Positions 20,872 through 45,825 of a stretch of DNA of 46,944 nucleotides are shown in pieces. Location of the stretch: NCBI GenBank assembly GCA_017478855.1, contig JAFVCX010000131.1, positions 1 through 46,944 of the forward strand, written 5' to 3'. Position numbers and translations under genes: made by a program. This stretch comes from Muribaculaceae bacterium (GTDB lineage: Bacteria > Bacteroidota > Bacteroidia > Bacteroidales > Muribaculaceae). The notes under the pieces are model-generated. The model was not told the origin of the DNA. It worked only from the letters and a program-made list of their open reading frames with translations, and ran no database searches. The first letter of the stretch is position 1; every line of letters starts with the position of its first letter.

Positions 20872-21741
20872 ATGGAACGCAGCGAACTTCTTAAAAAAGT
20901 AAGAAAGATTGAGATCAAGACTAAGGGCTTGTCGCAAAACATTTTTGCCGGTGAGTAACACTCGGCATTTAAGGGGCGTGGCATGACCTTTAGCGAGGTG
21001 CGTGAGTATCAGTATGGTGATGACGTGCGCGACATCGATTGGAATGTGACCGCACGCTCTAACAAACCTTATGTGAAGGTTTATGAGGAAGAAAGAGAGC
21101 TCACCGTGATGCTGCTGGTGGACGTGAGCCAAAGCGGAGCTTTTGGCGCTGTGGGCGACGTGAAGCGCGAGGTCATGGCCGAAGTGGCGGCAACCCTTGC
21201 GTTTTCGGCCATACAGAACAACGACAAGGTGGGTGTGATATTCTTTACTGATCGTGTGGAAAAATTCATTCCGCCCAAGAAAGGGCGCAAACACATCTTG
21301 CTGGTCATTCGCGAACTCCTCGATTTCTCTCCCGAAGGAAGCGGCACCGACATCAACCATGCGCTTGAATACATGACGAGCGCTTTGAAAAAACGCTGCA
21401 CCACTTTCTTGGTGAGCGATTTTATAGACAGCCACAACTATGAGAAAGCGATGTCGATAGCCAACCACAAGCACGACCTGATGGCTATTCAAGTCTACGA
21501 CAAGCGGGAAGCGCAAATGCCCAATGTGGGGTTGGTTCCTATGCTTGATGCTGAGCGGGGCGGCGTACGATGGATAGATACCTCCAGCAAACGGGTGCGT
21601 CAAGCCTATGGCCGCTGGTGGTATGAGCGTCAGCAGGCGTTGCACGAAACGGTGCAGCGGTGCCGCGTGGACTTGGTGTCGACGGCCACCGACGAAGATT
21701 TTGTGAAGTCGCTCATGGCTTTGTTTAAGCAACGTGGCTAA
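20872..21741 (+). pseudogene. DUF58 (VWA-like) protein of the bat operon, interrupted by one in-frame TAA
   Basis: From ATG 20872 the frame reads MERSELLKKVRKIEIKTKGL, then SQNIFAGE, a TAA at 20956-20958 (codon 29), then HSAFKGRGMTFSEVREYQYG and on without interruption to 21741. Family members normally have a tyrosine at the stop (AGxYHSAFKGRGM), so TAT or TAC has become TAA. Without the stop the protein would have 289 residues, a normal length. The downstream part from ATG 20983 (252 residues) keeps the DUF58 core (YGDDVRDIDWN) and the VWA segment VMLLVDVSQS. If it reinitiates at 20983 it loses only the first 37 residues. It lies between moxR and the bat genes. Confidence 0.85.
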
Positions 21742-21751
21742 TGTGAATTCC

Positions 21752-22732
21752 ATGAAGGATAATATGGCAAACAAACAACATAATCGTTTTCTGCTTACTT
21801 TGCTGTGTGCAATGGTTCTGCTCGCCGCCACGGCGCAAAAGGCCACCATCACAGCAAAGCTCGATTCCACGCTCTTGCTTATGGGGCACACAACGGCTTT
21901 GCACCTGCAAGTGGTTCAGAACGCGAGTTCTCAAGGCGTGTTGCCCGTTGAGCGTCAAGACACCCTCAACGCTGCGGTTGAGATTGCCGAGAAAATGCGC
22001 CCCGACACAATAGATTTGGGTAATGGCCGCATTCAAATCAGCCGCGACCTGATTCTTCAATCATTCGATTCGGGCTTGTACGCCTTGCCTCCCATATTAT
22101 ATGTGATTGACGGTGAAACGATTCAAAGCAAATCCCTTGCATTGAAAGTCGTTCCGGTAAAGGTCGATACCACGCAAGACATCGTGGGGCTAAAGGAAAT
22201 AGAAGTGGTGCCGTTCAATCTGCTGGACTGGCTGCCCGATTTCATTACCGACTATTGGTGGTGTTGGTTGCTTTTGCTCATAATCTGTGCGGCCGCTTTG
22301 TACTATTATCACAGATGGTATAAAAAAGGAAAGAATCCTTTGCGACCCGAGAAAAAACGCTTACCGCCCTACGAAGAGGCTATGCTCAATCTTGAGGCCT
22401 TGAAAAATCGTCAGTTGTGGCAAAATGGGCAAGAAAAGGAATATTTCACCGGCTTGACCGATATCCTGCGTGTTTACATTGACCGTCGTTTTGCCGTGAA
22501 CGCGGTGGAAATGACCAGTACGCAGATTGTTGAAACACTCAAGCAAAATGGTGAAACAAAGGCGGTGAACGAGCAGCTGAGCATGATTTTAGAGATGGCC
22601 GACATCGTGAAGTTTGCGGCTGTACGTCCGTTGGCCGACGATAACGAGCTGGCCTATCGCCGAGCCGTGAATTTTGTGGAACAGACGCGCCCCACCGACC
22701 CGTCGCAAGAAAAAGAGGAGGAAAAGCGATGA
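21752..22732 (+). CDS. Bat-operon membrane accessory protein (DUF4381-like)
   Basis: A 326-residue protein with a signal peptide (about residues 1-29 ending ATAQ), an extracytoplasmic beta-rich domain (30-165), one membrane helix (about 169-187, WWCWLLLLIICAAALYY) and a cytoplasmic helical tail that is basic and then acidic (ends EKEEEKR). This position and topology match the BatD-like/DUF4381 accessory proteins between DUF58 and the first VWA gene in Bacteroidota bat operons. I chose ATG 21752; GTG codons upstream overlap DUF58 and ATG 21764 is possible. It overlaps batA by four bases. No catalytic motif. Confidence 0.75.
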   Translation: MKDNMANKQHNRFLLTLLCAMVLLAATAQKATITAKLDSTLLLMGHTTALHLQVVQNASSQGVLPVERQDTLNAAVEIAEKMRPDTIDLGNGRIQISRDLILQSFDSGLYALPPILYVIDGETIQSKSLALKVVPVKVDTTQDIVGLKEIEVVPFNLLDWLPDFITDYWWCWLLLLIICAAALYYYHRWYKKGKNPLRPEKKRLPPYEEAMLNLEALKNRQLWQNGQEKEYFTGLTDILRVYIDRRFAVNAVEMTSTQIVETLKQNGETKAVNEQLSMILEMADIVKFAAVRPLADDNELAYRRAVNFVEQTRPTDPSQEKEEEKR

Positions 22733-23721
22733 GGAGTTTAATGCATCCCGGTTGGCTCTGGCTGTTTGTGCTGTTTGTGCCCATCATCGCATGGTACATT
22801 TATAATTTGCGCACACAAGCACCCACTATGCGCATGAGCACCACCGAAGCATTCGACGCTTTGCCCATGAGTTGGCGTTCCGTGTTGCGGCATGTGGTTT
22901 TTGCGATGAAACTGGCTGCGTTAGGATGCTTAATCATCATCTTATGCCGTCCTCAAACGCACAATTCGTGGGAAACGAGCGATGTGGAGGGAACCGACAT
23001 TGTGGTGGCTCTCGATGTGAGCACATCCATGCTGGCCAAAGACTTTAAGCCCGACCGCCTTGACGCGGCAAAAGAAGTGGCCACACAATTTGTTTCGGGC
23101 CGCACTCACGATAATATCGCTCTTGTGCTTTTTGCCGGCGAAAGCTTCACGCAAGTGCCTATGACGATGGACAATACCACGCTCATCAATGCCATAGCGC
23201 AGGTGAACACCAGCTTGCTCGAAGACGGCACGGCCATAGGCGACGGCATTGCCACGGCCATCAATCGCATCAAAGATGGCAAGGCCGTGAGCAAAAGCAT
23301 CATTCTGCTCACCGACGGCTCTAACAACACCGGAGTGGTTGCCCCTCTCACGGCAGCACAGATAGCTCGCCAATATGGCATTAAGATTTACACAATAGGC
23401 GTGGGTAGCAATGGTTCCGCTCCTTATCCAGTGGCCATTGATTATGCCGGCAATGTGCAGTATCAAACGTTGCCCGTGGTAATTGATGAAGCGGCACTTA
23501 AAAAAATAGCCGCAACGACCGGTGGCAAATATTTCCGTGCCACCAACAAAAACGTGCTTGCCCAAGTGTTTAAGGAAATTGATGCTCTTGAGAAAACTCA
23601 CCTCGATGTGCAGCGATTCACTCACACGACCGACAACTATTGGCCGTGGGCATTAGCTTTCGCGCTCTTGCTGTTACTGGCCATTTTGGCCGACTACACA
23701 CTGCTGCGGCACATTCCTTAA
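22729..23721 (+). CDS. batA: VWA-domain membrane protein BatA
   Basis: A 330-residue protein with two N-terminal membrane helices (about 9-25 and 55-73), a von Willebrand A domain exposed to the periplasm, and a C-terminal helix (about 303-323). The metal-dependent adhesion site is intact: DVSTS at 96-100, a threonine in the DGTAIGDGIA segment and an aspartate in LLTDGSNNTG. VWA proteins of this type pair with MoxR ATPases. The start overlaps the preceding gene by four bases and batB follows after 36 bases. Confidence 0.92.
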   Translation: MRSLMHPGWLWLFVLFVPIIAWYIYNLRTQAPTMRMSTTEAFDALPMSWRSVLRHVVFAMKLAALGCLIIILCRPQTHNSWETSDVEGTDIVVALDVSTSMLAKDFKPDRLDAAKEVATQFVSGRTHDNIALVLFAGESFTQVPMTMDNTTLINAIAQVNTSLLEDGTAIGDGIATAINRIKDGKAVSKSIILLTDGSNNTGVVAPLTAAQIARQYGIKIYTIGVGSNGSAPYPVAIDYAGNVQYQTLPVVIDEAALKKIAATTGGKYFRATNKNVLAQVFKEIDALEKTHLDVQRFTHTTDNYWPWALAFALLLLLAILADYTLLRHIP

Positions 23722-23757
23722 ACCGATGAGATCACATGGCTCTTAAAAAAGAAACAA

Positions 23758-24795
23758 ATGTTTAGCTTCGCTTATCCACAATACTTTTACCTGCTGCTGT
23801 TGCTTCCCGCAATAGCGGGCCTCTTCCTTTGGGGGCGCGCAAAAAGAAAACGCAATTTGGAGCAGTTTGGGCGGCAACAGGTGGTGAAAAACCTCATGCC
23901 CGAAGTGTCGCCCTATAAACCGTGGGTAAAACTCACGCTTGAGTTGCTGCTGGTGTTTCTTGCGGTGGTGATTCTGGCGCGTCCACGCGCAGGGGTGGGC
24001 AAGGCCACCGAAAAGGTTCGCGGCATCGAGGTCATGGTTGCCCTCGACGTGTCTAATTCAATGAACGCCAGCAGCACATCCAACCAGCAAGACATCAGCC
24101 GCCTGCAACGCGCAAAGCTTTTGGTACAAAAACTCATCGATAGCTTTGACAACGACAAGGTGGGATTGGTCATTTTTGCCGGTAATGCTTATATGCAGAT
24201 GCCCATGACCAGCGACCTGAGCTCGGCAAAGCTCTTTCTCGACAACATCAACACCGAGATGGCTCCCACGCAGGGAACAGCCATCGGGGCAGCCATCAAC
24301 ATGGCCAAGCACAGCTTCACGCCTCATGCAAAAACGCAAAAAGCCATCATCGTTATTACCGATGGCGAAAACTTTGAAGACGATGCGGCAGGGGCGGCTC
24401 ATCAAGCGCAGAAACAAGGCATTCAAGTGAGTGTGATCGGTGTGGGCAGCGACCACGGAGCTCCCATTCCCATGCCCGATGGCTCTTATTTGACCGACGA
24501 CAATGGCCAGCCGGTAACCTCGTTCCTGAACGAACAAATGGCGCAAGACATTGCTCGAGCCGGAAAAGGCATCTACGTCAATGGCAATGCCAACGATGCT
24601 GTAGAAACGTTGCACGAAGCACTCGACAAGCTGGCCAAGTCTGATTTGGCTCAAATGACCTATACCCAGCACGACGAGCAATTTCCCGTCTTTGCGGCCA
24701 TCGCCTTTGTGTTGCTCATCGCGTTGCTCCTTCTGCTTGAACGCAAAAATCCGTGGCTTGAGAAATACAACTTCTTTACCCGAAATTCACAATGA
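23758..24795 (+). CDS. batB: VWA-domain membrane protein BatB
   Basis: A 345-residue paralogue of the preceding gene with the same plan: helices at about 9-25 and 58-75, a VWA domain with the metal site DVSNS (97-101), a TQGTAIGAA threonine loop and VITDGENFED, then a C-terminal helix (about 309-328). The two VWA proteins probably form a hetero-complex at the inner membrane, with the TPR proteins BatC and BatE. It overlaps batC by four bases (ATGA). Confidence 0.92.
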   Translation: MFSFAYPQYFYLLLLLPAIAGLFLWGRAKRKRNLEQFGRQQVVKNLMPEVSPYKPWVKLTLELLLVFLAVVILARPRAGVGKATEKVRGIEVMVALDVSNSMNASSTSNQQDISRLQRAKLLVQKLIDSFDNDKVGLVIFAGNAYMQMPMTSDLSSAKLFLDNINTEMAPTQGTAIGAAINMAKHSFTPHAKTQKAIIVITDGENFEDDAAGAAHQAQKQGIQVSVIGVGSDHGAPIPMPDGSYLTDDNGQPVTSFLNEQMAQDIARAGKGIYVNGNANDAVETLHEALDKLAKSDLAQMTYTQHDEQFPVFAAIAFVLLIALLLLLERKNPWLEKYNFFTRNSQ

Positions 24796-25574
24796 GAATG
24801 CAACGCATAAAATATGTGCTGATGTGCCTGCTCGTGCTCTTGGCATCCATGCCGGCTCAAGCGGTTGAAAAAAGTGTGAAAAAAGAGCGAAACCACATTC
24901 GTGCCGGCAACGCCTTGTTTCATGCCAAGCGTTATGCCGAGGCCGAGGTGGAATATAACAAGGCATTAGAGGTGGCCCCCACAAGTGAGGCCGCGAAATT
25001 CAATCTTGCCACAGCCCTGCTCATGCAGGGAGGCAACGCCGCGGGCGATGACGAAAAAGATAAGGAGAATAATCCCGTGAATCGCGCCGTGAAACTGCTT
25101 CAAGACTTGTCAGAGCATGCCACTCAAAAATCCATGCGTTCCAAGGCACATTACGATTTGGGCAACATTTCCTATGCCTCGCAGCAGTACCAGCAGGCGG
25201 TAGATTGTTATAAAAAAGCCCTGAGGCTCGACCCCAGCGACGACCAAGCCCGCTACAACTTGCGCATGGCGCAACTCAAGCTGCGCGACCAGCAAAACCA
25301 AAACAAAAATCAAAATCAGGACAAGAATCAAAACAAAGATAAGAATAAAGACCAAGACAAGAACAATCAGGATAAACAGAACCAGCAAGACAAAAAACAG
25401 CAAAATAATCAGGAACAAAACCAGCAACAACAGCAAGGAGGCATGAGCCAGCAAAATGTGGAACAGGTGCTGCAAACCATGCAAAATCAAGAGAATGCCA
25501 CGCAACAGCGAGTGAACATGGAGCAAGCAAAACAGAAACAAAGAGAACGGGCCCGCACCAATCGCCGCTGGTAA
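24792..25574 (+). CDS. batC: TPR protein BatC with Gln/Asn/Lys/Asp-rich tail
   Basis: A 260-residue secreted TPR protein. A signal peptide (about 1-24, ending AQA) is followed by TPR-like repeats: the first has GNALFHAKRYAEAEVEYNKA, the second HYDLGNISYASQQYQQAVDCYKKALRLDP. From about residue 167 the sequence becomes a run of Q, N, K and D (repeats such as NQNKNQNQDKNQNKDK), about 75 residues with no folded domain. This low-complexity tail is common in BatC, but its length varies. It overlaps batB by four bases and lies 27 bases before batD. Confidence 0.9.
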   Translation: MRMQRIKYVLMCLLVLLASMPAQAVEKSVKKERNHIRAGNALFHAKRYAEAEVEYNKALEVAPTSEAAKFNLATALLMQGGNAAGDDEKDKENNPVNRAVKLLQDLSEHATQKSMRSKAHYDLGNISYASQQYQQAVDCYKKALRLDPSDDQARYNLRMAQLKLRDQQNQNKNQNQDKNQNKDKNKDQDKNNQDKQNQQDKKQQNNQEQNQQQQQGGMSQQNVEQVLQTMQNQENATQQRVNMEQAKQKQRERARTNRRW

Positions 25575-25601
25575 TGCCAACTATGTGACAGTCACAGAAC
25601 A

Positions 25602-27455
25602 ATGAAAGCAAACCACAATAACATAGTCCGTTGCCTATTCTTCATGGCGTGTCTGCTGACGGTGCTCACCGTGCAGTCGGCAGTGACTTTCACGGCCCAT
25701 GCTCCACGTCAAGTTGAAAAAGACAGCAAGTTTAAGGTGAGTTTTGTGCTCTCTGATGCCGAAGGCTCTTCATTCACGCCACCCGATATCGCAGGGGCGC
25801 AAAAAATCTATGGGCCTGCTCTCTCCACCAGCTATAGTTCGTCGTGGGTCAATGGCAAAACTTCACAGTCGTCGTCGCAAGAATACACGATGATTTATAA
25901 AGCCACTTCGGTGGGGCGGCTCAATGTGGGTGCCGCGACAATCGAAGTGGGAGGCAAACGCCTGTCCACGCGGCCCATCACCATCGATGTGATACCGGCC
26001 GGCAAAGCCAGCCAGTCACAGCAACAATCCTCCCCGTCGCAACAACCTCAACCGCGCGGTGGAGTGCAGTATAACGACCCGCTCACGCAAGGCACCGAGA
26101 AAAATGTTACGGGCAACGACATATTTGTGCGCATCGAAATGTCAAAACCGCGTGTGTATGAGCAACAAGCGGTGGTATGCACCATTAAGCTCTACACGAA
26201 ATATCAAGTGTCGCAGTTCATACCCACCCTGCAACCGTCGTTTGATGGATTTCTCATTGAGGAAATTCCCATGCAACCCAGCCTGAACAATGTGGAAACC
26301 CATCATGGCCAGCAATACATGGTGGCCGTGCTGAAAAAGTGCATTCTTTATCCGCAGCAATCGGGAAAACTCACCATCACGTCGGGTAACTACGATGTAA
26401 ATGTGGTTCAATACGAAAACTTCCGCACCATTTTTGGCACATTGTCGCAACCGGTTGAGAAAAAACTTGTGGTAAAATCCAATAGTGCCACAGTCAATAT
26501 CCTTCCGCTTCCCGAGCCACGTCCGGCAGGATTTAATGGCGCGGTGGGTAAATTTAATGTGACTACCGAGCTGAAACCGGTCTCACTCAAGACCTATGCC
26601 GCCGCCACCTATTCCTATCGCATCGCGGGCACGGGCAACCTCAAGTACATAAAAGCGCCCGAGGTCACGTTCCCAAAAGAAATGGATGTGTATGACCCCA
26701 AAATCGATGTCAAGATTAATGCTGGTAGCGACATGAATGGCACGGCAACAGTCAACTACACGTTCATTCCTCAGTTTGCCGGCAAGTTTGTGATTCCGGC
26801 TTCGCATTTCGTCTACTTCAACCCCGACACCGAGCGCTACGATTCCATCGCGGTGCCGGCCACCACCCTGCAAGTGGCAAAGGGCGAAGGGGCACCCTCC
26901 AATCATTATAGGCTGAAAAACATGGACATTCGTCACATTCATAATGCGAATGGCTCATTGAGCAAGAATCCCTCCTTCATGCTGCGCCATTGGGGCTACT
27001 GGCTCGCCTACTTGATTCCCACGCTGACTTTTGCCGCTACACTCGTTTATTACCGCAAGCAGCTTAGGTTGCGGGCCGATGCGTCGCGTCTGCGCAATCG
27101 TCGGGCGGGCAAGTTGGCCAATCGTCGCTTGCGCAAAGCCCAGCGGCTGATGGCAAGCAATGCGGCCCCTGCGAAATTCTATGGTGAGTTGCTCTCTTCA
27201 GTGTGGGGATACATGAGCGATAAATTCAATATACCCGTTTCAGAACTGAACCGCGACAACCTCATGGAAACCCTTAACCAGCATGAGGTGGATGATGAGC
27301 TGAAGCAGCAAATTCTCGACCTGATTGATCAGTGTGAGTTTGCTCAATACGCGCCACAACTTTCTGGCGACGACCGTCGGGTTGTATTTGAACGTGCGGC
27401 CTCGGCCATCAACTCTCTTGAAAAACTGAAACCGGCAAAACCCTCTCAGTCATGA
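25602..27455 (+). CDS. batD: BatD (BatD-family oxygen tolerance protein)
   Basis: A 617-residue protein with a signal peptide (cleavage near SAV, residue 27), several extracytoplasmic immunoglobulin-like segments (the N-terminal unit with APRQVEKDSKFKVSFVLSDAEG; a central unit around FVRIEMSKPRVYEQQAVVCT; a third with YSYRIAGTGNLKYI), a Gln/Ser/Pro linker near residues 130-150, one membrane helix (about 465-483, following LRHWGYW), and a basic cytoplasmic tail of 130 residues. This is the BatD layout. The start at 25602 lies 27 bases after batC, and its stop overlaps batE by four bases. Confidence 0.92.
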   Translation: MKANHNNIVRCLFFMACLLTVLTVQSAVTFTAHAPRQVEKDSKFKVSFVLSDAEGSSFTPPDIAGAQKIYGPALSTSYSSSWVNGKTSQSSSQEYTMIYKATSVGRLNVGAATIEVGGKRLSTRPITIDVIPAGKASQSQQQSSPSQQPQPRGGVQYNDPLTQGTEKNVTGNDIFVRIEMSKPRVYEQQAVVCTIKLYTKYQVSQFIPTLQPSFDGFLIEEIPMQPSLNNVETHHGQQYMVAVLKKCILYPQQSGKLTITSGNYDVNVVQYENFRTIFGTLSQPVEKKLVVKSNSATVNILPLPEPRPAGFNGAVGKFNVTTELKPVSLKTYAAATYSYRIAGTGNLKYIKAPEVTFPKEMDVYDPKIDVKINAGSDMNGTATVNYTFIPQFAGKFVIPASHFVYFNPDTERYDSIAVPATTLQVAKGEGAPSNHYRLKNMDIRHIHNANGSLSKNPSFMLRHWGYWLAYLIPTLTFAATLVYYRKQLRLRADASRLRNRRAGKLANRRLRKAQRLMASNAAPAKFYGELLSSVWGYMSDKFNIPVSELNRDNLMETLNQHEVDDELKQQILDLIDQCEFAQYAPQLSGDDRRVVFERAASAINSLEKLKPAKPSQS

Positions 27456-28213
27456 AACAAATAGTTTTGCTCGCACTTTTGATTTGGACATGCAGTTCAG
27501 CCGCCGCCTCTCGGTTGCAGCAGGCCAACGACGCATATAACCGCGAACTCTATAATCAGGCTCTTCAGATCTATCTGTCGCAGGAGAAAACGGGCGAGGT
27601 GAGTGCCGACCTGTACTATAATATAGGAAACACCTACTATCGCCTTAAAGACAATGGTCATGCGGTTCTTTATTATGAGCGTGCTCTTTTACTCGACCCG
27701 TCAAATAAAGACGCGCGTTTTAATCTGGAATATGTGCGCGAAAGGGCCGGGCTGCAAATAGACGAGGGAAACAGTTTCTTCTCGCTTTGGACTGAAGAGA
27801 AAGTGAGCCATTTGAGCAGCAACAACTGGGCCACGATTGCCCTCGTGTCCTTTTTGCTGGTCTTGGCTGCGCTGGCACTGTATATATTCTCCGACAGCAC
27901 TTTATTTAGAAAAATAGGTTTTTTTGGCGGATTGCTGGTTGCATTGGTGTGTGCCTTATCACTTGTTTGCTCTTGGCACATGTGCGACAAAGTGCAAAAC
28001 CGCACCGATGCCATAGTGATGGCCGAGGATGCCACATTCAGTACGGCTCCTCGTGCGCCCAAAGATCAAAGTGAAGTAGCTTTTAAGCTCAAGCAAGGCA
28101 TCAAAATCAGCGTTGTGGATAGCGTCAAGGTGGCCGACAAAAAATGGTGTCAGGTTAAACTTACCGATGGCCGCGTCGCTTGGATTTTGGCCGGCGATAT
28201 CGAAATCATTTGA
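27452..28213 (+). CDS. batE: BatE, TPR and SH3-like protein
   Basis: A 253-residue membrane protein. It has a signal peptide (about 1-19), two TPR motifs (AYNRELYNQALQIYL ... LYYNIGNTYYRLKDNGHAVLYYERAL), two membrane helices (about 126-147 and 154-174), and a C-terminal bacterial SH3-like domain containing KDQSEVAFKLKQG and DGRVAWILAGDIEII. This matches BatE at the end of bat operons. Its product closes the set of MoxR, DUF58, two VWA and two TPR proteins. Confidence 0.92.
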   Translation: MKQIVLLALLIWTCSSAAASRLQQANDAYNRELYNQALQIYLSQEKTGEVSADLYYNIGNTYYRLKDNGHAVLYYERALLLDPSNKDARFNLEYVRERAGLQIDEGNSFFSLWTEEKVSHLSSNNWATIALVSFLLVLAALALYIFSDSTLFRKIGFFGGLLVALVCALSLVCSWHMCDKVQNRTDAIVMAEDATFSTAPRAPKDQSEVAFKLKQGIKISVVDSVKVADKKWCQVKLTDGRVAWILAGDIEII

Positions 28214-28241
28214 AATATAACATAAACACAACTGAAATGTC

Positions 28242-28916
28242 ATGATTGAATATCTCGATGCGATAGACCAAAGCGTTTTCTTGGCCATTAACGGAAGCCA
28301 CATAGGTTACTTTGATTGGGTGATGTGGTGTGTGTCGAGCCGGTTGTCATGGACTTTAATTTTAGTGGCGTTTCTGTTGGCCTTGCGCAATAAGGGCTGG
28401 AAGCATGCTTTGCTCATCATCATGGCAGTGGCGTTGGCCATCTTGGTGGCCGATCAAATCTCATCGGGCTTCATTAAGCATGCGGTGGAGCGGTTGCGTC
28501 CCTCGCATAATCCCTCGCTTGAAAATACGATCCACATCGTCAATGGTTATCGGGGCGGCATGTATGGTTTCGTGTCGAGCCATGCGGCCAATTCGTTTGC
28601 CGTTTCACTCTTGTTGGGGCTGGTCACAGTGCGCAAGCGGGTGTTGTGTGCCATGATGGCTTGGGCGGTGCTTCAGTGCTACAGCCGGGTCTATCTGGGC
28701 GTTCACTATCCGGGCGACATCTTAGGTGGGGCTGTTGTGGGGCTTTTGTCGGGATGGCTCGTCTATCGCTTGTGGCTTGTGGCCGAGCGCAGGCTGCTGC
28801 GCGGAGATGGCGTTTTGCTGTCAGAGCGCGATGCCACATGGCTGGCACACAGCGTGTGGCTCTCGGTGACTCTCATGTTGCTCATGCCTGTTTTGCTCAT
28901 GCAATTCGACCAATAA
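28242..28916 (+). CDS. PAP2-family membrane phosphatase
   Basis: A 224-residue protein with five or six membrane helices and the three phosphatase motifs of the PAP2 superfamily: KHAVERLRP (79-87), the VSSHAANSF form of PSGH (His114), and SRVYLGVHYPGD (148-159). Substrates of such enzymes include undecaprenyl pyrophosphate, phosphatidate and lipid A phosphates. No feature decides among these. The family is common in Bacteroidota, where lipid A 1- and 4'-phosphatases (LpxE/LpxF type) belong to it. It follows batE by 28 bases. Confidence 0.88.
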   Translation: MIEYLDAIDQSVFLAINGSHIGYFDWVMWCVSSRLSWTLILVAFLLALRNKGWKHALLIIMAVALAILVADQISSGFIKHAVERLRPSHNPSLENTIHIVNGYRGGMYGFVSSHAANSFAVSLLLGLVTVRKRVLCAMMAWAVLQCYSRVYLGVHYPGDILGGAVVGLLSGWLVYRLWLVAERRLLRGDGVLLSERDATWLAHSVWLSVTLMLLMPVLLMQFDQ

Positions 28917-28942
28917 AAAGATAATTTCTCAAAAAAGATAAT

Positions 28943-29197
28943 ATGAAAATCATCACGTTTAACGAATTAAGAAGAATCAAAAACCAGTTGCCCGAAGGCT
29001 CCACTCATGTGATTGCCGATAAGTTGAATTTGAGCGTGCAAACGGTGCGCAACTATTTTGGAGGCACCAATTATGATGCCGGCGAGAATATGGGGCTTCA
29101 CATCGAACCGGGTCCCGACGGAGGATATGTGACGCTTGACGACACAAAAATCTTAGACATGGCTCTTGAGATTCTTTCCGATTCAGAGAAAAAATAA
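28943..29197 (+). CDS. Small helix-turn-helix-like DNA-binding protein
   Basis: An 84-residue protein with a predicted helix-turn-helix: LPEGSTHVIADKLNLSVQTVRNYFGG reads as a compact HTH (residues about 14-40) in which the second helix LSVQTVRNYF would contact DNA. The C-terminal half is acidic (GPDGGYVTLDDTKILDMALE). Homologues of this size occur across Bacteroidales. Target unknown. The start is 26 bases after the PAP2 gene, and the next gene follows within 21 bases, so it may be in the same transcript. Confidence 0.75.
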   Translation: MKIITFNELRRIKNQLPEGSTHVIADKLNLSVQTVRNYFGGTNYDAGENMGLHIEPGPDGGYVTLDDTKILDMALEILSDSEKK

Positions 29198-29218
29198 ACC
29201 CTTTCATCTTCATTTTCA

Positions 29219-33652: not shown

Positions 33653-34849
33653 TTAGGATTTCTTTCGGGTGAGTTGAATAACGGTGATTTCGGGGGTGGC
33701 TCCCATGCGCATGGGCACTCCCACCATGCCGATGCCGGTGTTCACATACAGGTGCTGCTCTCCCACGGTGTAAAGTCCGCCCCATCGGCGATAGCGCAAC
33801 CTTGCGGGTGACAGTTCGAGTCCGAAAAGGTTGAAAATCGTTTGAAACGCGTGCGTGTGCCCCGATAGAGTGAGTGTGGCATTGGTCTTGCCCACAATTT
33901 CGTGATCCCATTGCTTGGGATTGTGTTGCATGACGATGAGCATGGCACTATCGGGGTAGTGGGCTATGGATTGCTGAAGATTGGCATAATTCAGAAAATC
34001 CTTCTCGCTATAATTTTCTTCACCGGCCACCACGATTCCCTTGCGCACTTCAACCCACTCGTTGCAAAGGACTTTCCATCCGGCTTTTTGCATGAGCAGG
34101 CGCAGAGCTTGTCTATCGGCCTCTTTTTCTTCGGACGAAGCCCAATCGGTGTAATCGTCATAATCATGATTGCCCGAAACCGACAACACGCCATCTCGCG
34201 CCTGCAAATTTGTCAAAAGTTGACAATAAGGCTCGGCCTCGCTGGTCATGCGGCTCACAAGGTCGCCGGTGAAACAAATGAGGTCGGGTTTCAGCTCATT
34301 CACTTGCTCAAAGACACTTTGCAAATAGTCTTTGTGACTGCCGTCGTAGGTGCCCAAATGCAAATCGCTGATGTGGACTATGGTGTAGGAATCGAGGTCG
34401 GCAGGCAAAGAATTGGTTTCGATGGTGGCATGCTTCACGCGATATGTGAAAGGCGTGAGCAGGGTAGCCCACAACATGAGTACGAGCACGCACACGCTCA
34501 CTACCCATGCGCTGCGTCTGATGAACCGCTGGTTGCGCCAGTGCAGCCAGCGCCGCAACGAGAGGGCATGAAGCCCATAACCCAAAAGCCGTGGCACATA
34601 CACGCACATGTAGCCCCACAGAACCCACATCATGACCACAAACGCGTGATTGCTTAGAGAAGGCGACCTTAGGGGGACGAAACAGCACACGCTCAAAAAG
34701 ACGGCATGCATTAGAGCGGATGTGACCATGTGGAGTGTCGTGGCTTTGCCATGCCACACCCGCCGCTTGGTTAAGTGTCGCGCGATGCGCCAGTCAACCC
34801 ACAGGTTGACGATAAGCAGCACCAATAATCCTATCCACTGTATTCTCAC
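33653..34849 (-). CDS. Membrane-anchored metallophosphoesterase
   Basis: A 398-residue protein with about four or five helices in the first 140 residues, then a calcineurin-like phosphoesterase domain: HISDLHLGTYDG, CFTGDLVSRM, SGNHDYDDY, VMQHNPKQWD and LSGHTHAFQ, which supply the two-metal site. YkuE-type enzymes have this plan, and the C-terminal segment YTVGEQHLYVNTGIGMVGVPMRMGATPEI fits too. Substrate unknown (related LpxH hydrolyses UDP-diacylglucosamine, but LpxH lacks membrane helices). It overlaps the acyltransferase by four bases. Confidence 0.9.
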   Translation of the reverse strand: MRIQWIGLLVLLIVNLWVDWRIARHLTKRRVWHGKATTLHMVTSALMHAVFLSVCCFVPLRSPSLSNHAFVVMMWVLWGYMCVYVPRLLGYGLHALSLRRWLHWRNQRFIRRSAWVVSVCVLVLMLWATLLTPFTYRVKHATIETNSLPADLDSYTIVHISDLHLGTYDGSHKDYLQSVFEQVNELKPDLICFTGDLVSRMTSEAEPYCQLLTNLQARDGVLSVSGNHDYDDYTDWASSEEKEADRQALRLLMQKAGWKVLCNEWVEVRKGIVVAGEENYSEKDFLNYANLQQSIAHYPDSAMLIVMQHNPKQWDHEIVGKTNATLTLSGHTHAFQTIFNLFGLELSPARLRYRRWGGLYTVGEQHLYVNTGIGMVGVPMRMGATPEITVIQLTRKKS

Positions 34850-36024
34850 TTGAGTGCTTCGAGTTGGTTGGTGAGCGGATTGCTATACATTTGCAACATT
34901 TTAGTGTACATATAATAGCGGTCGAACTCACTGAGTTTGATGTCGGTTTTCGAAATCTGGTCGCTCAAATATTTCGTGAACGCCTCTTTTTCTTCGGGAG
35001 TGTACTCGTGGGCGAAATCCTTGTTGTCGAAGAGGATGTCATGGGCGATATAGTTGGTCTTGAATACTTTGTAATTCAAGTGAATGGCGTGGTCGATAAT
35101 GGCACAGATGCGCGAAACAGTGAGCATCTTATCGAGGTCTTCGGGAATCTTGTCGAGTTCATCGTTGATGCAGGGTGTGAACGAATAGTGAACTTCTCCC
35201 TTATATCCCATGATGCCCGTCTGCATGCTGATGAGATCGTCCTCTGGACTCTTCTTCCAGTTAGGATTTTTGTCTTTCATGAGGAACTCTTTGGCTTTGA
35301 GATAGTCGTTGGGGTCATATTCATAGCTGATGGCTACGGGAGCGATATTGAGTTCCTTAAGGCTCTCGACGATGGATTTTTCTCTTGCACCATAGGTGAG
35401 CATCTTGATGAGGCTTTCCTGCGTGCGGTCGTTGCTGTCCTTGCAGCGACCTTCTCGCTGCGCAATCCATACCGATTCGCCCTTCTGCGTGATGGCAAAG
35501 TGCATGTAACTCTATAGCTGAATGGCAGCTTGCAGGGTTTGGATTCGGCCCAAGTTCCGCTTAACGATGAAACTCTTGTTGAGCCTGACGAGCTTATTGA
35601 TCCAATCGAAAACGAGCAGGTTGTTGCCGATGGCGATTTCGCACGACTCGCGTCCGTCGTTGAGCAAGATGTAGCCCAACTGTGCCGAATCGAGCACAAT
35701 GTCGCGATGATTGGTGATGAACATATTGGGCACGTCTTCGCTGGTACACTCTTTAAGACCGCTCGATGTGAGTCCGCTTGTGGTCTTGGCCAAAAGACCC
35801 TCAATGTAGGGTTTCATGATCTTCAGCTGGAATTCATGCTTTGAGTTGAGGCTTAAAAGCTGGTACTTGAGTTCGTTGTATTTGTAATTGGGGAGCACCA
35901 TGCCCACGATCTTGCGAAAAGCGGGTTCTTCCACAAGAATCGACATGGCGTTGTGGAAATCTTTGTCGGCAATGGGACAAATATCCATAAATTCTGCCGG
36001 GGTAATCACATTCTCTTTTTTCAT
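34846..36024 (-). pseudogene. PlsC-like acyltransferase interrupted by an in-frame TAG
   Basis: The frame opens at ATG 36024 (MKKENVITPAEFMDICPIAD) and reads to a TAG at 35514-35512 (codon 171), then continues in the same frame to 34846. Without the stop the protein has 392 residues. Family members are 1-acylglycerol-3-phosphate acyltransferase-like proteins: NHRDIVLDSAQLGYILLNDG carries the catalytic His/Asp pair (here as HRDxxxD, not the canonical HX4D), with AIGNNLLVF and KSFIVKRNL as the other family blocks. The codons around the stop are CAG CTA TAG AGT TAC ATG. The downstream part holds the conserved QKGESVWIAQREGRCKD. The 4-base overlap with the metallophosphoesterase is intact. Confidence 0.85.
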
Positions 36025-36829: not shown

Positions 36830-36868
36830 TTAATTGTTACCGCACCCGATGGTGCATATTAGGGCAAA

Positions 36869-37438: not shown

Positions 37439-37452
37439 AAAGCGGACGGGTT

Positions 37453-38871: not shown

Positions 38872-38932
38872 ACGGCAAAAAACGGCTCTCGTGAACGATG
38901 CGAATTCACATACCCCGGCACCGGCTCGGCGC

Positions 38933-40714
38933 ATGACACGCTTTGAGCGATTGTTGCATTGGCGCGAATGCCACATGAGCGACCGCAACTTTGTGTCGTT
39001 GCTGGCCCTGATTGTGGGTGTGTTGAGCGGCTTGGCGGCAGTGCTTCTTAAATTTCTCATAGGCTGGATTGGCGACGCGATTACCAGCACTACGCTTGCC
39101 TCACAGGCCAACTGGCAGTATCTTGTTTTTCCGCTTGTGGGCATTCTGCTCTCGGCGTTATATGTGCGCTATGCGGTGCGCGACAACATTTCGCATGGTG
39201 TGACGCGTGTGCTCTATGCCATCGCGCAGAAGAAGAGCCAGCTGCCGTTCAAAAATATGTATGCCTCGCTCATCGCGTCGTCGCTCACCATAGGATTTGG
39301 TGGCTCGGTGGGAGCCGAAGGCCCCATGGCTTTTACGGGGGCAGCCATCGGTTCGAATTTGGGCAAAAAGTTTCGTTTGCCACCTCAAACGCTCATGTTG
39401 CTGCTGGGCTGCGGTGCCGCGGCCGGTATTGCCGGCATCTTCAAGGCACCGATTGCCGGAGTGCTGTTTGCCGTTGAAGTGCTGATGCTCGACCTCACGG
39501 CCGGACGTGCCATGCCGCTGATTTTGTCGTCGGTGTGCGGTGCTACGGTGGCCTATGTGTTCACAGGCTATAACGTGGAGTTCTTCTTCTCGCAGAGTGA
39601 GCCTTTCTTTGCTCGCCGCATCCCTTATGTGGCTTTGCTGGGCGTGTTTTGCGGGTTTGTGTCGCTTTATTTCTGTGGTGTGGTGGGCATGGTGGAAAAT
39701 GCCTTCAGCCGCCTGAAAGACCACCGGTTGCGCTATGTGTACGGCGGTGTGCTGCTGAGCGTTTTGATTTATTTGTTGCCGCCGCTGTATGGTGAAGGAT
39801 ATAACTCCATCAATGAGTTGCTTGATGGCAATGTGACGGCCATTATGGATTCCAGCCTATTTTACGCGTTTCACGACAACGCATGGGCAGTGCTTGTGTT
39901 TGTGCTGGCGTTGGGTGCCTGCAAAGGCGTGGCCACGGCTGCGACAAATGGCGCCGGTGGGGTGGGTGGTACCTTTGCCCCCTCGCTCTATGTGGGGTGC
40001 ATGGCCGGTTTCTTTTTCGCTACTTTGCTGAACTTATCGGGGATAGTGGACGCTTCGATGCCGCTCTCGACCAAAAATTTTGCGCTCATGGGCATGGCCG
40101 GCGTGATGGCCGGCGTGATGCATGCCCCGCTGATGGCCATCTTTCTCACGGCCGAAATGACGGGAGGCTATGAGCTGTTTCTGCCTCTGCTCATCGTGAG
40201 CGCTATGAGCTATGGCACAGCCAGAGTGTTTACGCCTTATGGCATATATTCGCGGCGCTTGGCGCAGCGTGGCCAATTGCTTACGCACCAAAAGGACCGC
40301 AGCGTGCTCACGCTGATGCAAGTGGAGAACGTGATAGAAACCGACTTCACGCCGGTGCGCCCTGAAATGGACTTGAAACAGATGGTAGACGTGATTGCCC
40401 GCAGCAACCGAAATTTGTTTCCCGTCGTGGACGGAAATGGAATGCTACTGGGCGTGGTGCTGCTCGATGACATCAGAAACATTATCTTCCGCCCCGACCT
40501 GTATAAACGGCTCACGGTGGACCGATTTATGGCAACACCTCCGGCCCGCATTGAGCAGGGATTGCCCATGGAGCAGGTGATGGAGCGCTTTGAGCGGACG
40601 GGCGCATGGAATCTGCCGGTGGTGGATGCCGATGGAAAATATGTGGGTTTTGTTTCGAAATCAAAGATATTCAACACATATAGGCAGTTGCGTAAATATT
40701 ACAGCAACGACTGA
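38933..40714 (+). CDS. ClC-family chloride/proton exchanger with CBS domains
   Basis: A 593-residue ClC protein with about ten helices and two C-terminal CBS domains (from about residue 450). The selectivity motifs are present: GFGGSVGAEGP, with the gating glutamate of exchangers, GIFKAPIAGVLFAVEV, and GVGGTFAPSLYVG. A gating glutamate indicates H+/Cl- (or F-) exchange rather than a passive channel. I chose ATG 38933 (MTRFERLLHW), which gives the family's usual length; GTG 38891 would add 14 residues. A longer frame overlaps the sugar-transferase gene. Confidence 0.92.
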   Translation: MTRFERLLHWRECHMSDRNFVSLLALIVGVLSGLAAVLLKFLIGWIGDAITSTTLASQANWQYLVFPLVGILLSALYVRYAVRDNISHGVTRVLYAIAQKKSQLPFKNMYASLIASSLTIGFGGSVGAEGPMAFTGAAIGSNLGKKFRLPPQTLMLLLGCGAAAGIAGIFKAPIAGVLFAVEVLMLDLTAGRAMPLILSSVCGATVAYVFTGYNVEFFFSQSEPFFARRIPYVALLGVFCGFVSLYFCGVVGMVENAFSRLKDHRLRYVYGGVLLSVLIYLLPPLYGEGYNSINELLDGNVTAIMDSSLFYAFHDNAWAVLVFVLALGACKGVATAATNGAGGVGGTFAPSLYVGCMAGFFFATLLNLSGIVDASMPLSTKNFALMGMAGVMAGVMHAPLMAIFLTAEMTGGYELFLPLLIVSAMSYGTARVFTPYGIYSRRLAQRGQLLTHQKDRSVLTLMQVENVIETDFTPVRPEMDLKQMVDVIARSNRNLFPVVDGNGMLLGVVLLDDIRNIIFRPDLYKRLTVDRFMATPPARIEQGLPMEQVMERFERTGAWNLPVVDADGKYVGFVSKSKIFNTYRQLRKYYSND

Positions 40715-40722
40715 CAGGAAAA

Positions 40723-41688
40723 ATGAGCAAAGAAGAACTGAAAATCGTGTTTTTTGGCACGCCCGACTTTGCGGTGGAGAGTTTGCGCCGCCTTGTGGAA
40801 GGTGGATACCAAGTGGCGGCTGTGGTGACGATGCCCGACAAAACGGGTGGTCGGGGCCACCACGTCATTGAAAGCGCGGTGAAACAATATGCGGTGCAAC
40901 AAGGTCTGCCCTTATTGCAACCCGAAAAATTGAAGGATGAGAATTTCTTGAATCGGTTGCGTGAGATTGGCGCCGATCTGTTTATCGTCATCGCATTCAG
41001 AATGTTGCCGCAGGCAGTGTGGCAGATGCCTCGACTGGGCACTTTTAACCTGCATGCGTCGCTGCTGCCCAAGTATCGTGGTGCCGCTCCAATTAATTGG
41101 GCCGTGATGAACGGTGAAGTCAAAACCGGTGTCACCACTTTTTTCTTGAAGCATGAGATCGACACAGGCGACATCATCGGTCAGCGCAGCATCGACATAG
41201 GGAGAACCGATAACGTGGAGGTGGTGCACAACCGCCTGATGGTGTTGGGTGCTGAGATGGTGGTGGAAACAGTGGATGCCATCATTGCGGGGTCGGTAAC
41301 CGCGATACCTCAAGAAAACTTGCTTGGTGCTGGAGAAGAGCCCACCCCTGCGCCCAAAATTTTTACCGCTACCTGTCGTGTGGATTGGACCCGGACAGCC
41401 GAGGAAGTGTATAACCACATAAGAGGACTTAGCCCATATCCTGCCGCGTGGACGGTGATGAGAGATGCCGAAGGCCATGAATGGAATGTGAAATTGCTGC
41501 AAACCACGGAGCCTTTTGCAAACCACGGAATTCCCGGTCAAACGACGACTGATGGAAAACGCTTGATTGTGGCGTGCGCCGACGGTGCTGTGGAGCTGCT
41601 GCAACTGCAGCCATCGGGCAAAAGACGCATGAGCGCAGAAGATTTTTTGCGCGGGTTGCGCTATGTGGCTCCGCTCGTGTGCGAGTGA
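40723..41688 (+). CDS. fmt: Methionyl-tRNA formyltransferase
   Basis: A 321-residue enzyme that formylates initiator methionyl-tRNA using 10-formyl-THF. Catalytic residues Asn109, His111 and Asp150 are visible in TFNLHASLLPKYRGAAPINW and EIDTGD, with the N-terminal fold opening KIVFFGTPDFAVESL. The C-terminal tRNA-binding domain begins near TRTAEEVYNHIRGLSPYPAAW. It starts eight bases after the ClC gene. Length and motifs are complete. Confidence 0.96.
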   Translation: MSKEELKIVFFGTPDFAVESLRRLVEGGYQVAAVVTMPDKTGGRGHHVIESAVKQYAVQQGLPLLQPEKLKDENFLNRLREIGADLFIVIAFRMLPQAVWQMPRLGTFNLHASLLPKYRGAAPINWAVMNGEVKTGVTTFFLKHEIDTGDIIGQRSIDIGRTDNVEVVHNRLMVLGAEMVVETVDAIIAGSVTAIPQENLLGAGEEPTPAPKIFTATCRVDWTRTAEEVYNHIRGLSPYPAAWTVMRDAEGHEWNVKLLQTTEPFANHGIPGQTTTDGKRLIVACADGAVELLQLQPSGKRRMSAEDFLRGLRYVAPLVCE

Positions 41689-41714
41689 ATGTTTTTGGGC
41701 AAATTGCGTGAAGC

Positions 41715-43124
41715 ATGCTGTTTAACTCATTGACCTACATATTGTCGCTGCCCCTGTTTTTGGCTATCTATTATGCCGTGCCACATGGCTGGCGCAATGC
41801 GTTGTTGCTGGTGGCCAGCCTCGCTTTATATATGCTGTGGTGGCCGGCCGGCATTGTGGTGATGGGATGGGTGGCAGTGACAAGCTATTATGCCGTGCAG
41901 CGTTTAGGGCAGGCGCAGAACAGGAATCGTCGTGAGCTATGGATGTGGATTGTGACGATATTGGCACCTCTGCTGTTCTTCAAGTATCTGCAACCCATTA
42001 ATGAGTGCCTCACAGAGGCGTTGCACATCGACTGGTTTTTGAATCATCACCGATGGGCCATACCTGTGGGCCTTTCGTTCTATTCGTTGCAGGCATTGAG
42101 CTATGTGGCGGATGTGTATCAAGGCCGTGCCATTGCCCAAAAGTCATGGCTCAACCATGCGCTTTTTGTGTGCTTTTTCCCCACGGTGGTGTCGGGGCCT
42201 ATTAGCCGCAGCAAGCATTTATTGGCGCAAATTGAGAGCCGCCCCGCAACCGTCAATGCCTGATTGATGGTGAAAGGCATCAAATGGATGCTGTGGGGGT
42301 TGTTTCTGAAACTGGTGCTGGCCGACTGTTACTTTCTGTTTGTTCATGCGGTTGACGGCAGCTGGCAGCGTCACAATGGTTTCACGCTGCTTGTGTCGTC
42401 GCTGTGCTATATGGTGCAGCTCTATGGCGACTTTGCCGGATACTCGCTCATGGCAATAGGCTCGGCTGCGCTAATGGGCATTGAGTTGCCGCAGAACTTC
42501 ATGAGGCCATTTTTCTCGGTGGGCGTGCGCGATTTCTGGCGGCGGTGGCACATATCGCTCAGCACATGGTTGCGCGATTACATTTATTTTCCGTTGGGCG
42601 GAAGCCGCTGCACAGAGTGGCGCACGAGATTAAACCTGCTTATTACATTCATGGTGAGTGGCCTGTGGCATGGAGCCGGTTGGATTTTTGTGCTGTGGGG
42701 AATGCTTCATGGGCTATGGGTAGCGCTGGAGCGTGCCATCCATTTCAGGGATTATTCGGAGAAAACATGGGTGAAGGTGGTGGTCATGCCCATAACGTTT
42801 GTCATCGCGGCATTGTTATTTGTGACGTTTAACCACGATTGGGGCACCACGATGTACTTCTATCAGGCCATTTTTACTGATTTGTGGCCCATGAAGTTAT
42901 CAATGACCTTAAGCACAACATTGCAGGCAAGGCTACTGTCGATGGCTGCGGCTCTTGCGATTGTGCTCATGAAAGAAGCTCAAGAAGAATGGTGGCCTCA
43001 TGTGTTTGCCGGGAAAAAATGGGGAACTGCCGCCTCGGCTTCGTTTTATGTGGCTGTGGTGTGGATGATTCTCGCTATGGGTGTGCTGGACAGCGGTAGC
43101 CAATTCATTTATATGCACTTTTAA
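41715..43124 (+). pseudogene. MBOAT-family O-acyltransferase interrupted by an in-frame TGA
   Basis: From ATG 41715 (MLFNSLTYILSLPLFLAIYY) the frame reads through several helices to a TGA at 42261-42263 (codon 183) and continues in frame from LMVKGIKWMLWGLFLKLVLAD to 43124, 470 codons in all. The family is AlgI/DltB-like: GPISRSKHLLAQIES, RRWHISLSTWLRDYIYFPLGG and SGLWHGAGWIFVLWGMLHG with the catalytic histidine in GLWHGA, which lies after the stop. The upstream fragment of 182 residues and the downstream one of 286 residues are each incomplete. The partner SGNH gene follows six bases later. TTG 42264 and ATG 42267 could allow reinitiation just past the stop. Confidence 0.85.
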
Positions 43125-43130
43125 GAACTG

Positions 43131-44063
43131 ATGAACATGAAGCGAATTGTCATAACAGGTTTGCTGCTGGTGCTGGTGGTCGTTGCCGGCGACCGGTTCA
43201 TCGGCTCGCTTTTGAGCTGGGGCTATCATGCCACCACCTGTGGTGAAATAGGGCGATTGAATGAGGTGCTCGACTCGGTGGAAACACCCATAGTGGTGGT
43301 GGGCTCTTCACGAGCGTTGCATCACTATGTGCCCTCGGTCATCAGCGACAGCACAGGGCTGGAGTGCTATAATTGCGGCTTTGAGGGCGAGCAGGTGCAG
43401 TTTTATTACGCGCTTCTGCGGCAGTTGCATGCGCGATACAGTCCACAACTTATCGTGTGTGAGCTAACGTATGATATGGATGTGGATGACCTGCCGTGGA
43501 ATGTGAAACTCAATCACTTGCGCATGATGGACCGGCTCTCGTGCCGAGATTCTATTTTGTGCAGTTACGATCCATTGGAGCGGGTGAGCCTACTCTCGGC
43601 CATTTATCCATATAACTCATTGCTGCCCATCATCGCTATGAGCCAGAAGCCGGACGCTTACGACGCTCCAGATGTGGACAATGGGTATATGCCTCAGTAT
43701 CGCATCTTTGATGACAAACGGTTGAACGGAGAATTCAGAGCAAAAAAAACCGAATCGGTTGATTCCGTGAAATGGAGCTACCTCACCAAACTGGTGAAGG
43801 AATATGGGGACAAACTGATCATGTTTGTTTCTCCTCGTTATATGTCGAAAGAAAATGACATCTATGGCGAGGTGGAAAACTTGTGCGCTACTCATGGCGT
43901 ACCTTTTTATTGCTTTGTGGACCATCCGGTCATTAGCACCGACATTACTTTATGGGATGATGATGGCCACATGAACGACAGGGGAGCGCGAGCCTACAGC
44001 CAAATGGTGGCTCCGCTCATCAAGCAACGATTATTACAAATTCAAAACAAGAAACAACTATGA
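43131..44063 (+). CDS. SGNH/GDSL-like acetyltransferase partner of the MBOAT
   Basis: A 310-residue protein with an N-terminal membrane anchor (about residues 5-21) and an extracytoplasmic SGNH-like domain. The nucleophile block is VVVGSSRALHHY (Ser near 59-60), and the catalytic Asp/His pair is in LWDDDGHMNDRGA (near residue 278), so the hydrolase-like triad is present. AlgJ, AlgX, DltD and PatB-like partners of MBOAT proteins have this layout and transfer acetyl groups to polysaccharides. It is six bases after the MBOAT and overlaps the lipoprotein gene by four bases. Confidence 0.82.
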   Translation: MNMKRIVITGLLLVLVVVAGDRFIGSLLSWGYHATTCGEIGRLNEVLDSVETPIVVVGSSRALHHYVPSVISDSTGLECYNCGFEGEQVQFYYALLRQLHARYSPQLIVCELTYDMDVDDLPWNVKLNHLRMMDRLSCRDSILCSYDPLERVSLLSAIYPYNSLLPIIAMSQKPDAYDAPDVDNGYMPQYRIFDDKRLNGEFRAKKTESVDSVKWSYLTKLVKEYGDKLIMFVSPRYMSKENDIYGEVENLCATHGVPFYCFVDHPVISTDITLWDDDGHMNDRGARAYSQMVAPLIKQRLLQIQNKKQL

Positions 44064-44761
44064 GAAAACATTTGCTATTGTTGACAACAGTGTTGGCCGC
44101 GCTGATGCTCGCGTCGTGTGGCAACGACGAACCCGTGGTGCGAATCAATTATGAACCCGTGGATTTGGGGCTGAGCGTGAAATGGGCCACCATGAACATT
44201 GGTGCCGCCAAAACCACAGCTTATGGCAAGCTGATGGGATGGGCCGACTCGTCGGGTGTTCATTCTACCCAAGATGGTATCGTCATTTCATATCGTGATA
44301 ATAAAACTTATTGCGAATGGAACTCTCCATATTATGGTGGAAAAAGCCCGATGAACAACATCAGCGGCTCGAACTATGACGCGGCCCGATATATGTGGAA
44401 CCTAAAGTGGCGTGTGCCCACACAGGCCGAGTGGCAAGAACTGATTAACGGCTGCACATGGACCACAGAAACGACTGCCGAAGGCCTCCGCGTGGCGCGT
44501 GCCACCGGCCCCAACGGCAAGAGCGTCATCTTTCAGCTGGGCGGCATTGATGAAGTGGGCGATGGCTCTCCGGCTGACCGTGGTGTCATAGGGTATTACT
44601 GGACGGCGACATTGCTGCCACAAGCCTCTCAAACTTCCTATGGATATGAGAGCAATGTGGCATGCGCGGCATGGGCCGTGGTGATGAGCGACGGTAGGCC
44701 GCAACTTGTACCCCAAGTGCGTTGCTACCATCTGTTGATTCGCCCTGTTTTGGCCGAATAA
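44060..44761 (+). CDS. FSMD-like (Fibrobacter-type paralogous domain) lipoprotein
   Basis: A 233-residue predicted lipoprotein with signal peptide MRKHLLLLTTVLAALMLASC (Cys20). The body has the repeated Bacteroidota and Fibrobacter pattern YEPVDLGLSVKWATMNIGA, later WRVPTQAEWQELINGCTW and GYYWTATLLPQ, which marks this surface domain family. Role unknown; it may bind polysaccharide. It starts within the end of the SGNH gene (four-base overlap), so the two are translationally coupled. Confidence 0.78.
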   Translation: MRKHLLLLTTVLAALMLASCGNDEPVVRINYEPVDLGLSVKWATMNIGAAKTTAYGKLMGWADSSGVHSTQDGIVISYRDNKTYCEWNSPYYGGKSPMNNISGSNYDAARYMWNLKWRVPTQAEWQELINGCTWTTETTAEGLRVARATGPNGKSVIFQLGGIDEVGDGSPADRGVIGYYWTATLLPQASQTSYGYESNVACAAWAVVMSDGRPQLVPQVRCYHLLIRPVLAE

Positions 44762-44808
44762 GTTTTATGGCTAAAATTTAATGTGTACTATTTCTTCATT
44801 TATTGCTC

Positions 44809-45825
44809 ATGAATAAAATCGCTTTTCTATTTGCCGCCATCTTGTTGATGAGTTATCCGTCGTCGGCTCAGAATTCTCTCATCAATAAAACTTTGCAAGA
44901 TATTGCTAATCAGGTGAGTATCTTGTAGAAGCATGGCACTTGGAATGAAAAACAACGGCTTGATGATGTGGCCACCAATGACGAACTGGTGGAAATCGCG
45001 CAACTTCACCCTCATGCCGAAGCGCGAGCTTGCGCTTTCAGCCTGCTGGTGGATAGAAACGACAAGCGATGCAAAGACTTGCTGCTGGCCACCTTGCGCG
45101 ACACCAGCATGGTGATGTGCCGTGCTTATGACATGTTATGGAATGATTGCGTGTGCAGTTATAATGTGGATGTGATGTTCAATAGCAAGAATCTCACCGA
45201 AAGCGAAAAAGAGGAACTTGACAGTGTGTTGCTCTTTACCCCCAATCTTTGGAGCATCTCACGCATTGGTGATATCCTGCGCCATCTGCCTGCTGAAGAA
45301 AAATATTATGACCGCGTGCGCGACATATATTGCAATGAGCAAAACACTCTTGCACTGATGGCTTTGGCCAACTATCGTCTAGATGCCGACAAACCGCTCA
45401 TCATCAAAGCTTTGATGGAATTTTCCAAAGGCTACGATAAATTGCATCGAAGCACGAAGGGTGAAACCGGCGGCACCAATCAAGCATTGGCGGCAGTGCG
45501 ACGATGGCCTGATGCCGACTTCATGCCGGCACTCATCAAACTGCGAGATTACGAGCTAAAGGCGAAGTATTACGATTATAGTCGCATCAGGCTGTTTTAT
45601 GATGCCCTGATGGCCTATGACGACCAGCGTTCATATGACATTATAGATGAAACTCTCTCGAAGGCAGAAGGGCGCAATAATGGTTACACATTTGAATTTC
45701 ACAGCAAGATATTCAAGGCTGCGGTGTTAGACGGCTGGCCCAAGACTCAACGATACATGCCCTTGATTGAGAAACACCAACTTCAGGACGTGGATGTGGA
45801 AATGTGGCAGCGTTCAAGAGGTTAA
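44809..45825 (+). pseudogene. Secreted helical (HEAT-like) protein, interrupted by an in-frame TAG
   Basis: ATG 44809 starts a signal peptide (MNKIAFLFAAILLMSYPSSAQ) in frame with the main reading frame. A TAG at 44926-44928 (codon 40, between VSIL and KHGTWNEKQRL) interrupts it; the remainder to 45825 is open, giving 338 codons. The body is mostly helical, with ALMALANYRLDADKPLIIKAL and PDADFMPALIKLRDYELK as HEAT-like helix pairs; no catalytic motif. Without readthrough the next in-frame start is GTG 44968, which would remove the signal peptide. I do not recognise a named family. Confidence 0.75.

What the first reader, a model, noticed from the sequence alone, without database searches (positions are those of the whole stretch)
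20872..45825. Four genes each with one clean in-frame stop codon, covering all three stops
TAA at 20956 (DUF58), TAG at 35514-35512 (acyltransferase), TGA at 42261 (MBOAT) and TAG at 44926 (secreted protein). In each the frame continues for the full family length on the far side, no indel is seen, and neighbours with 4-base overlaps remain intact. All four are envelope-related. The use of all three stops argues against a changed genetic code for one codon, and the absence of frameshifts does not fit typical long-read errors. Recent nonsense mutations, a hypermutator history, consensus errors, or some kind of readthrough are possible.
Basis: partly seen in the sequence, partly recalled or inferred. 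Interest (0 to 1): 0.8.

Follow-up and report, generated by a model that had tools for sequence, protein, structure and literature searches.

The report
Stray stop codons in draft genome
Four genes in this stretch of a draft bacterial genome each carry one in-frame stop codon that aligned relatives lack, and they look like isolated base changes (mistakes in the assembled sequence or ordinary gene-breaking mutations), not a new way of reading the genetic code.

Summary
In detail: four genes carry one in-frame stop each, at the stated places. Where same-genus relatives align well they have a sense codon: 29 of 29 (acyltransferase), 30 of 30 (DUF58). Nothing points to recoding: none of the 40 tRNA matches read has a stop-reading anticodon, both release-factor genes are open, and all three stops end other genes. 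The assembly is a 147-contig draft, 92% complete. Another 880 kb of it held five more broken genes: ClpC, RNase E/G (two stops), transglutaminase-like, FAD oxidoreductase and NAGPA-like. The stops are therefore not envelope-specific. No frameshift was seen in about 90 kb covered by relatives. Five same-genus control genomes gave one believable stop in 612 kb. Four in 47 kb is a local cluster, but the window was picked for it. At least six other same-genus drafts also carry a broken DUF58 gene. Best reading: isolated base substitutions without function, with consensus errors or minor alleles slightly likelier than genuine nonsense mutations. Only reads or a second isolate can decide. Interest is low.

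The parts
20872..21741 (+). DUF58 / vWA-like gene with an in-frame TAA at codon 29 (20956-20958); an ATG at 20983 downstream keeps the whole DUF58 domain
20956..20958 (+). in-frame TAA in DUF58; sense codon in 30 of 30 aligned relatives
34846..36024 (-). acyltransferase-like gene (PF01553 at 22.3 bits, just under cut-off) with one in-frame TAG
35512..35514 (-). in-frame TAG; sense codon in 29 of 29 aligned same-genus loci
41715..43124 (+). MBOAT O-acyltransferase gene with one in-frame TGA
42261..42263 (+). in-frame TGA at codon 183 of MBOAT; no stop in 29 aligned loci (one gapped there)
44809..45825 (+). signal-peptide-like protein of no known family, one in-frame TAG at codon 40
   Evidence: signal peptide judged by eye
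44926..44928 (+). in-frame TAG; only one relative covers the site, with a sense codon

Best explanation
The four stops are unrelated single-codon substitutions with no joint function. The likeliest source is the assembled sequence of a metagenome-style draft: base errors, or alleles of a minor strain, fixed into the consensus of particular contigs, so that a gene intact in most cells reads as broken. Shown: the stops exist, the frames are otherwise open, aligned relatives have a sense codon, similar stops occur elsewhere in the same draft, and no frameshift or recoding apparatus was found. Inferred: that the cause is the consensus and not the cell.
For: Draft of 147 contigs, 92.4% complete, 3.7% contaminated. 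Breaks are substitutions only: 6 stops and 0 frameshifts in 89.8 kb of own sequence covered by relatives; Cooley and Wright (PMC11017572) report that low-quality reads mainly raise internal stops and that low coverage creates spurious pseudogenes. The stops cluster by contig: four on this one, two in one gene on the 3.9-kb C110, and three of the five broken genes outside the window on contigs under 10 kb, which make up 105 of 880 kb (p = 0.014). They hit genes with no second copy found: acyltransferase (one own match) and RNase E/G (one own match to that part of the query). The DUF58 stop lies in the most conserved DNA of that gene (codons 21-60), and at least six other same-genus drafts carry a broken DUF58 frame, four of the breaks between codons 28 and 90.
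Against: No reads could be examined. At 3.6% nonsense per random substitution, four stops imply roughly 100 wrong bases in 47 kb (my arithmetic), a poor contig. Private missense changes at invariant columns show no clear excess (own ranks 2 of 30, 7 of 30, 2 of 28, 1 of 29 and 10 of 30 in five window genes), but the test is too weak to exclude that error rate. The C110 gene with two stops, and the extra private changes in ClpC (12 of 118 invariant columns against 0-5 in seven relatives), also fit real decay. Exact matches to other species beside the stops are not unusually long, so chimeric joining is not shown.
Confidence: 0.5

Rival explanations
1. Genuine recent nonsense mutations: the sampled strain has lost these genes, and the frames are intact past the stop because too little time has passed for further damage.
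For: Stops are private to this genome among aligned relatives; frames are otherwise open. Transglutaminase-like and ClpC genes show several private changes at invariant columns (10 of 263 and 12 of 118), as relaxed selection would give. RNase E/G has two stops. Own genome outside the window is not significantly above controls (five genes in 880 kb against none counted in 612 kb gave p = 0.07; one control stop was then recognised, which weakens it further), so a normal pseudogene load is enough there.
Against: No frameshift was found beside the stops, though real decay makes both. Genes conserved through the genus are hit (DUF58 in 98 of 100 others; acyltransferase in 96 of 100). Clustering on one contig is not expected of scattered mutations.
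Confidence: 0.4
2. A base-substitution mutator lineage (for example a defect in oxidised-guanine repair), which would explain substitutions without indels and all three stops.
For: Four of six comparable stops fit a G:C>T:A change (one of these could also be T:A>A:T).
Against: The other two are a T:A>A:T and a C:G>T:A type. With 33.7% expected at equal rates, four of six is not significant (P about 0.10, my arithmetic). mutY is open and over its family cut-off. Most large contigs sampled in the third set show no believable stop. MutM, MutT, MutS and MutL were not searched.
Confidence: 0.05
3. Termination with re-initiation or natural splitting: the downstream pieces are translated from their own start codons.
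For: ATG lies 2, 3 and 9 codons after the stop in MBOAT, acyltransferase and DUF58; the DUF58 piece from 20983 keeps the whole Pfam domain.
Against: No aligned relative has a split at these sites; in the acyltransferase the nearby methionine is conserved in most intact relatives, so it is not a new start.
Confidence: 0.03
4. Stop-codon readthrough or reassignment.
For: Open frame on the far side; stops in genes conserved through the genus.
Against: No stop-reading anticodon among 40 tRNA matches read; both release-factor genes open; all three stops terminate other genes; replaced residues differ between sites.
Confidence: 0.02

Closest known systems
Spurious internal-stop pseudogenes of draft assemblies (Cooley and Wright 2024, BMC Genomics, PMC11017572; abstract, passages and part of Results seen)
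   Same: Internal stops without frameshifts, in genes intact in relatives, in a fragmented draft, concentrated by contig
   Different: Their tests used nearly identical genomes and raw reads, neither of which is available here; the closest relatives are other species
Ordinary recent nonsense pseudogenes of bacteria
   Same: Single in-frame stop, rest of frame open, private to one genome
   Different: Several hit genus-wide conserved genes and no frameshift was found beside them

Membership tests
Assembly-derived spurious internal stop | Intact copies of the gene in related genomes | tested here: met
   29 of 29 and 30 of 30 aligned relatives have a sense codon for two of the genes
Assembly-derived spurious internal stop | Stops more frequent than in comparable genomes | tested here: inconclusive
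   Window 4 in 47 kb; rest of own sample five genes in 880 kb; controls 1 in 612 kb; only the window stands out clearly and it was selected
Assembly-derived spurious internal stop | Sense codon in the reads or in an independent assembly of the same strain | not testable with these tools
   No reads; no same-species sequence found (one pattern scan of viral contigs for the DUF58 flanks gave none)
Genuine nonsense pseudogene | Stop at full frequency in the population sampled | not testable with these tools
   No reads
Genuine nonsense pseudogene | Relaxed selection on the broken gene | tested here: inconclusive
   Raised private change in ClpC (12 of 118 columns against 0-5 in seven relatives), not clearly in RNase E/G, DUF58 or acyltransferase
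Recoded or suppressed stop codon | tRNA with an anticodon reading a stop codon | tested here: not met
   40 of 40 RF00005 matches read with ARAGORN, none; genome 92% complete
Recoded or suppressed stop codon | Codon not used, or rare, as a terminator | tested here: not met
   TAA 302, TGA 185, TAG 61 of 548 frame ends
Recoded or suppressed stop codon | One residue replaced throughout | tested here: not met
   Different conserved residues at the comparable sites
Oxidative-damage mutator | Dominance of one transversion class | tested here: inconclusive
   4 of 6 at best, expected 33.7%
Oxidative-damage mutator | Loss of a repair gene | tested here: inconclusive
   mutY intact; MutM and MutT not searched

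The most novel reading that the evidence does not exclude
The population really carries these stops, and the cells still make usable proteins from some of the broken genes by re-initiation a few codons downstream or by leaky reading, so that a whole contig of genes tolerates stops without being lost.
Probability: 0.03. Interest if true: 0.6.

Novelty: already known. Interest (0 to 1): 0.12.

Why it matters
It is a reminder that internal stops in draft genomes should not be read as biology without reads. The case also gives a small observation that can be followed: a DUF58 gene whose most conserved stretch is broken in several drafts of one genus, which may mark an assembly trap.

Tried and rejected
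A first codon-usage scan with strict thresholds missed all four known stops and was dropped. A first homology screen was swamped by wrong-frame reading frames used as queries and was replaced by a filtered one. Candidates flagged by the hexamer scans were sorted by eye: those with a start codon soon after the stop were called gene junctions, and low-scoring unclear ones were set aside in own and control sets alike. RNase E/G was seen only with the looser thresholds and by homology. Downstream minimum length differed slightly. A private-missense test for error had too little power. A test for chimeric joining through long exact matches showed nothing unusual. A scan of viral contigs for an independent copy of the DUF58 site found none. 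Paper searches found nothing; each listed one paper that I did not open.

Considered and rejected: code change, suppressor tRNA, selenocysteine or pyrrolysine (no consistent residue, no stop-reading tRNA), and a theme of envelope genes.

Full report
What is there. The DUF58 gene (20872-21741) has its stop at codon 29, before the Pfam domain, which begins at residue 42. The MBOAT stop falls inside the matched stretch (144-343, stop at 183), and the acyltransferase stop inside a match just under the family cut-off. The fourth protein has no Pfam match and is rare: six of 100 other same-genus genomes have a homologue.

Relatives. The acyltransferase is found in 96 of 100 other same-genus genomes; 29 of 29 aligned loci have a sense codon at the site. 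Four of the orthologue rows list one TAA; those matches begin before the start codon of the gene, so I read the stop as upstream, but I did not check them one by one. DUF58 is found in 98 of 100 others and 30 of 30 aligned loci have a sense codon. MBOAT relatives are distant (53% at best), and none of 29 loci has a stop there. For the fourth gene only one relative covers the site.

Is it a code or a readthrough system? The own genome has 40 tRNA family matches. I read each with ARAGORN and found no anticodon for a stop codon. Two release-factor genes carry the PCRF domain without stops. TAA, TGA and TAG end 302, 185 and 61 of 548 confident frames. The residues replaced differ between sites. 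So the frames are broken as the sequence stands, not recoded.

How widespread is it? The window is a whole contig of a draft genome of 2.31 Mb in 147 contigs, 92.4% complete and 3.7% contaminated. I sampled a further 880 kb in 60 stretches. Hexamer coding scores on both sides of each stop, then reading by eye, gave five more broken genes: ClpC, a transglutaminase-like gene, an FAD oxidoreductase, RNase E/G and an NAGPA-like gene. Pfam domains or PDB alignments run across or to both sides of these stops. RNase E/G has a second stop, found by homology. In the spike-in test about 0.75 of artificial stops passed the looser thresholds, so real numbers are somewhat higher. At uniform thresholds the window gives 4 in 47 kb, the rest of the own sample 4 in 880 kb, and five same-genus control genomes 1 in 612 kb (an AraC-type regulator in G055). 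Outside the window the own genome is therefore not clearly different from controls. The window is a local cluster (expected 0.27, P = 1.7e-4), but it reached me because of that cluster.

Error or mutation? For error: substitutions only, with six stops and no frameshift in 89.8 kb covered by relatives. That set is biased towards stop genes, because some relatives were fetched for them; the controls gave no frameshift in about 146 kb and three flagged stops that I read as lying upstream of start codons. Also for error: clustering by contig and on short contigs (three of five broken genes on 105 of 880 kb, p = 0.014); hits in genes for which I found no second copy; and a published match, in which low-quality reads mainly raise internal stops and low coverage creates spurious pseudogenes (PMC11017572). 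In DUF58 at least six other same-genus drafts are broken too. Five are in two reading frames and one lacks the first 27 codons in frame, and the breaks of four lie between codons 28 and 90. This is around the most conserved DNA of the gene (codons 21-60), where metagenome assemblies may tangle between species. For genuine mutation: ClpC and the transglutaminase-like gene carry more private changes at invariant columns than most relatives, and the own genome ranks high, though not alone, for private changes in some window genes. I put error or minor allele at 0.5 and genuine nonsense at 0.4.

Mutator. Six stops can be compared at good identity. Four fit a G:C>T:A change (one ambiguous), one is T:A>A:T and one C:G>T:A. 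That is not significant against 33.7% expected at equal rates. mutY is intact.

Verdict. This is an ordinary feature of draft genomes, not a system.

Noticed in passing
L160:420 and L160:915 (own contig C110, 3.9 kb): RNase E/G, for which only one own match was found, carries two in-frame stops.
   Followed up: partly
L155:186 (own contig C65): ClpC C-terminal part with an in-frame stop and raised private change at invariant columns (12 of 118).
   Followed up: partly
L156:16774 (own contig C72): Transglutaminase-like gene with an in-frame stop inside the core domain; private changes also beside it.
   Followed up: partly
L159:1914 (own contig C100) and L249:7517 (own contig C91): FAD oxidoreductase (UDP-galactopyranose mutase-like) and NAGPA-like phosphodiester glycosidase, each with one in-frame TAG.
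   Followed up: partly
L356, L357, L358, L359, L360, L362: DUF58 genes of six other same-genus drafts are broken by frame changes or a lost start part, four of them between codons 28 and 90; L357 repeats codons 28-46, which looks like a misassembly.
   Followed up: partly
L361: The acyltransferase of G059 is in two different frames on one contig.
   Followed up: partly
L177:868 (G055): AraC-type regulator with an in-frame TAG, the one believable stop in the control genomes.
   Followed up: partly
own genome: Eleven of 12 other same-genus genomes show a weaker second match to the MutY family (probably endonuclease III, by recall); the own draft and G018 do not.
   Followed up: no
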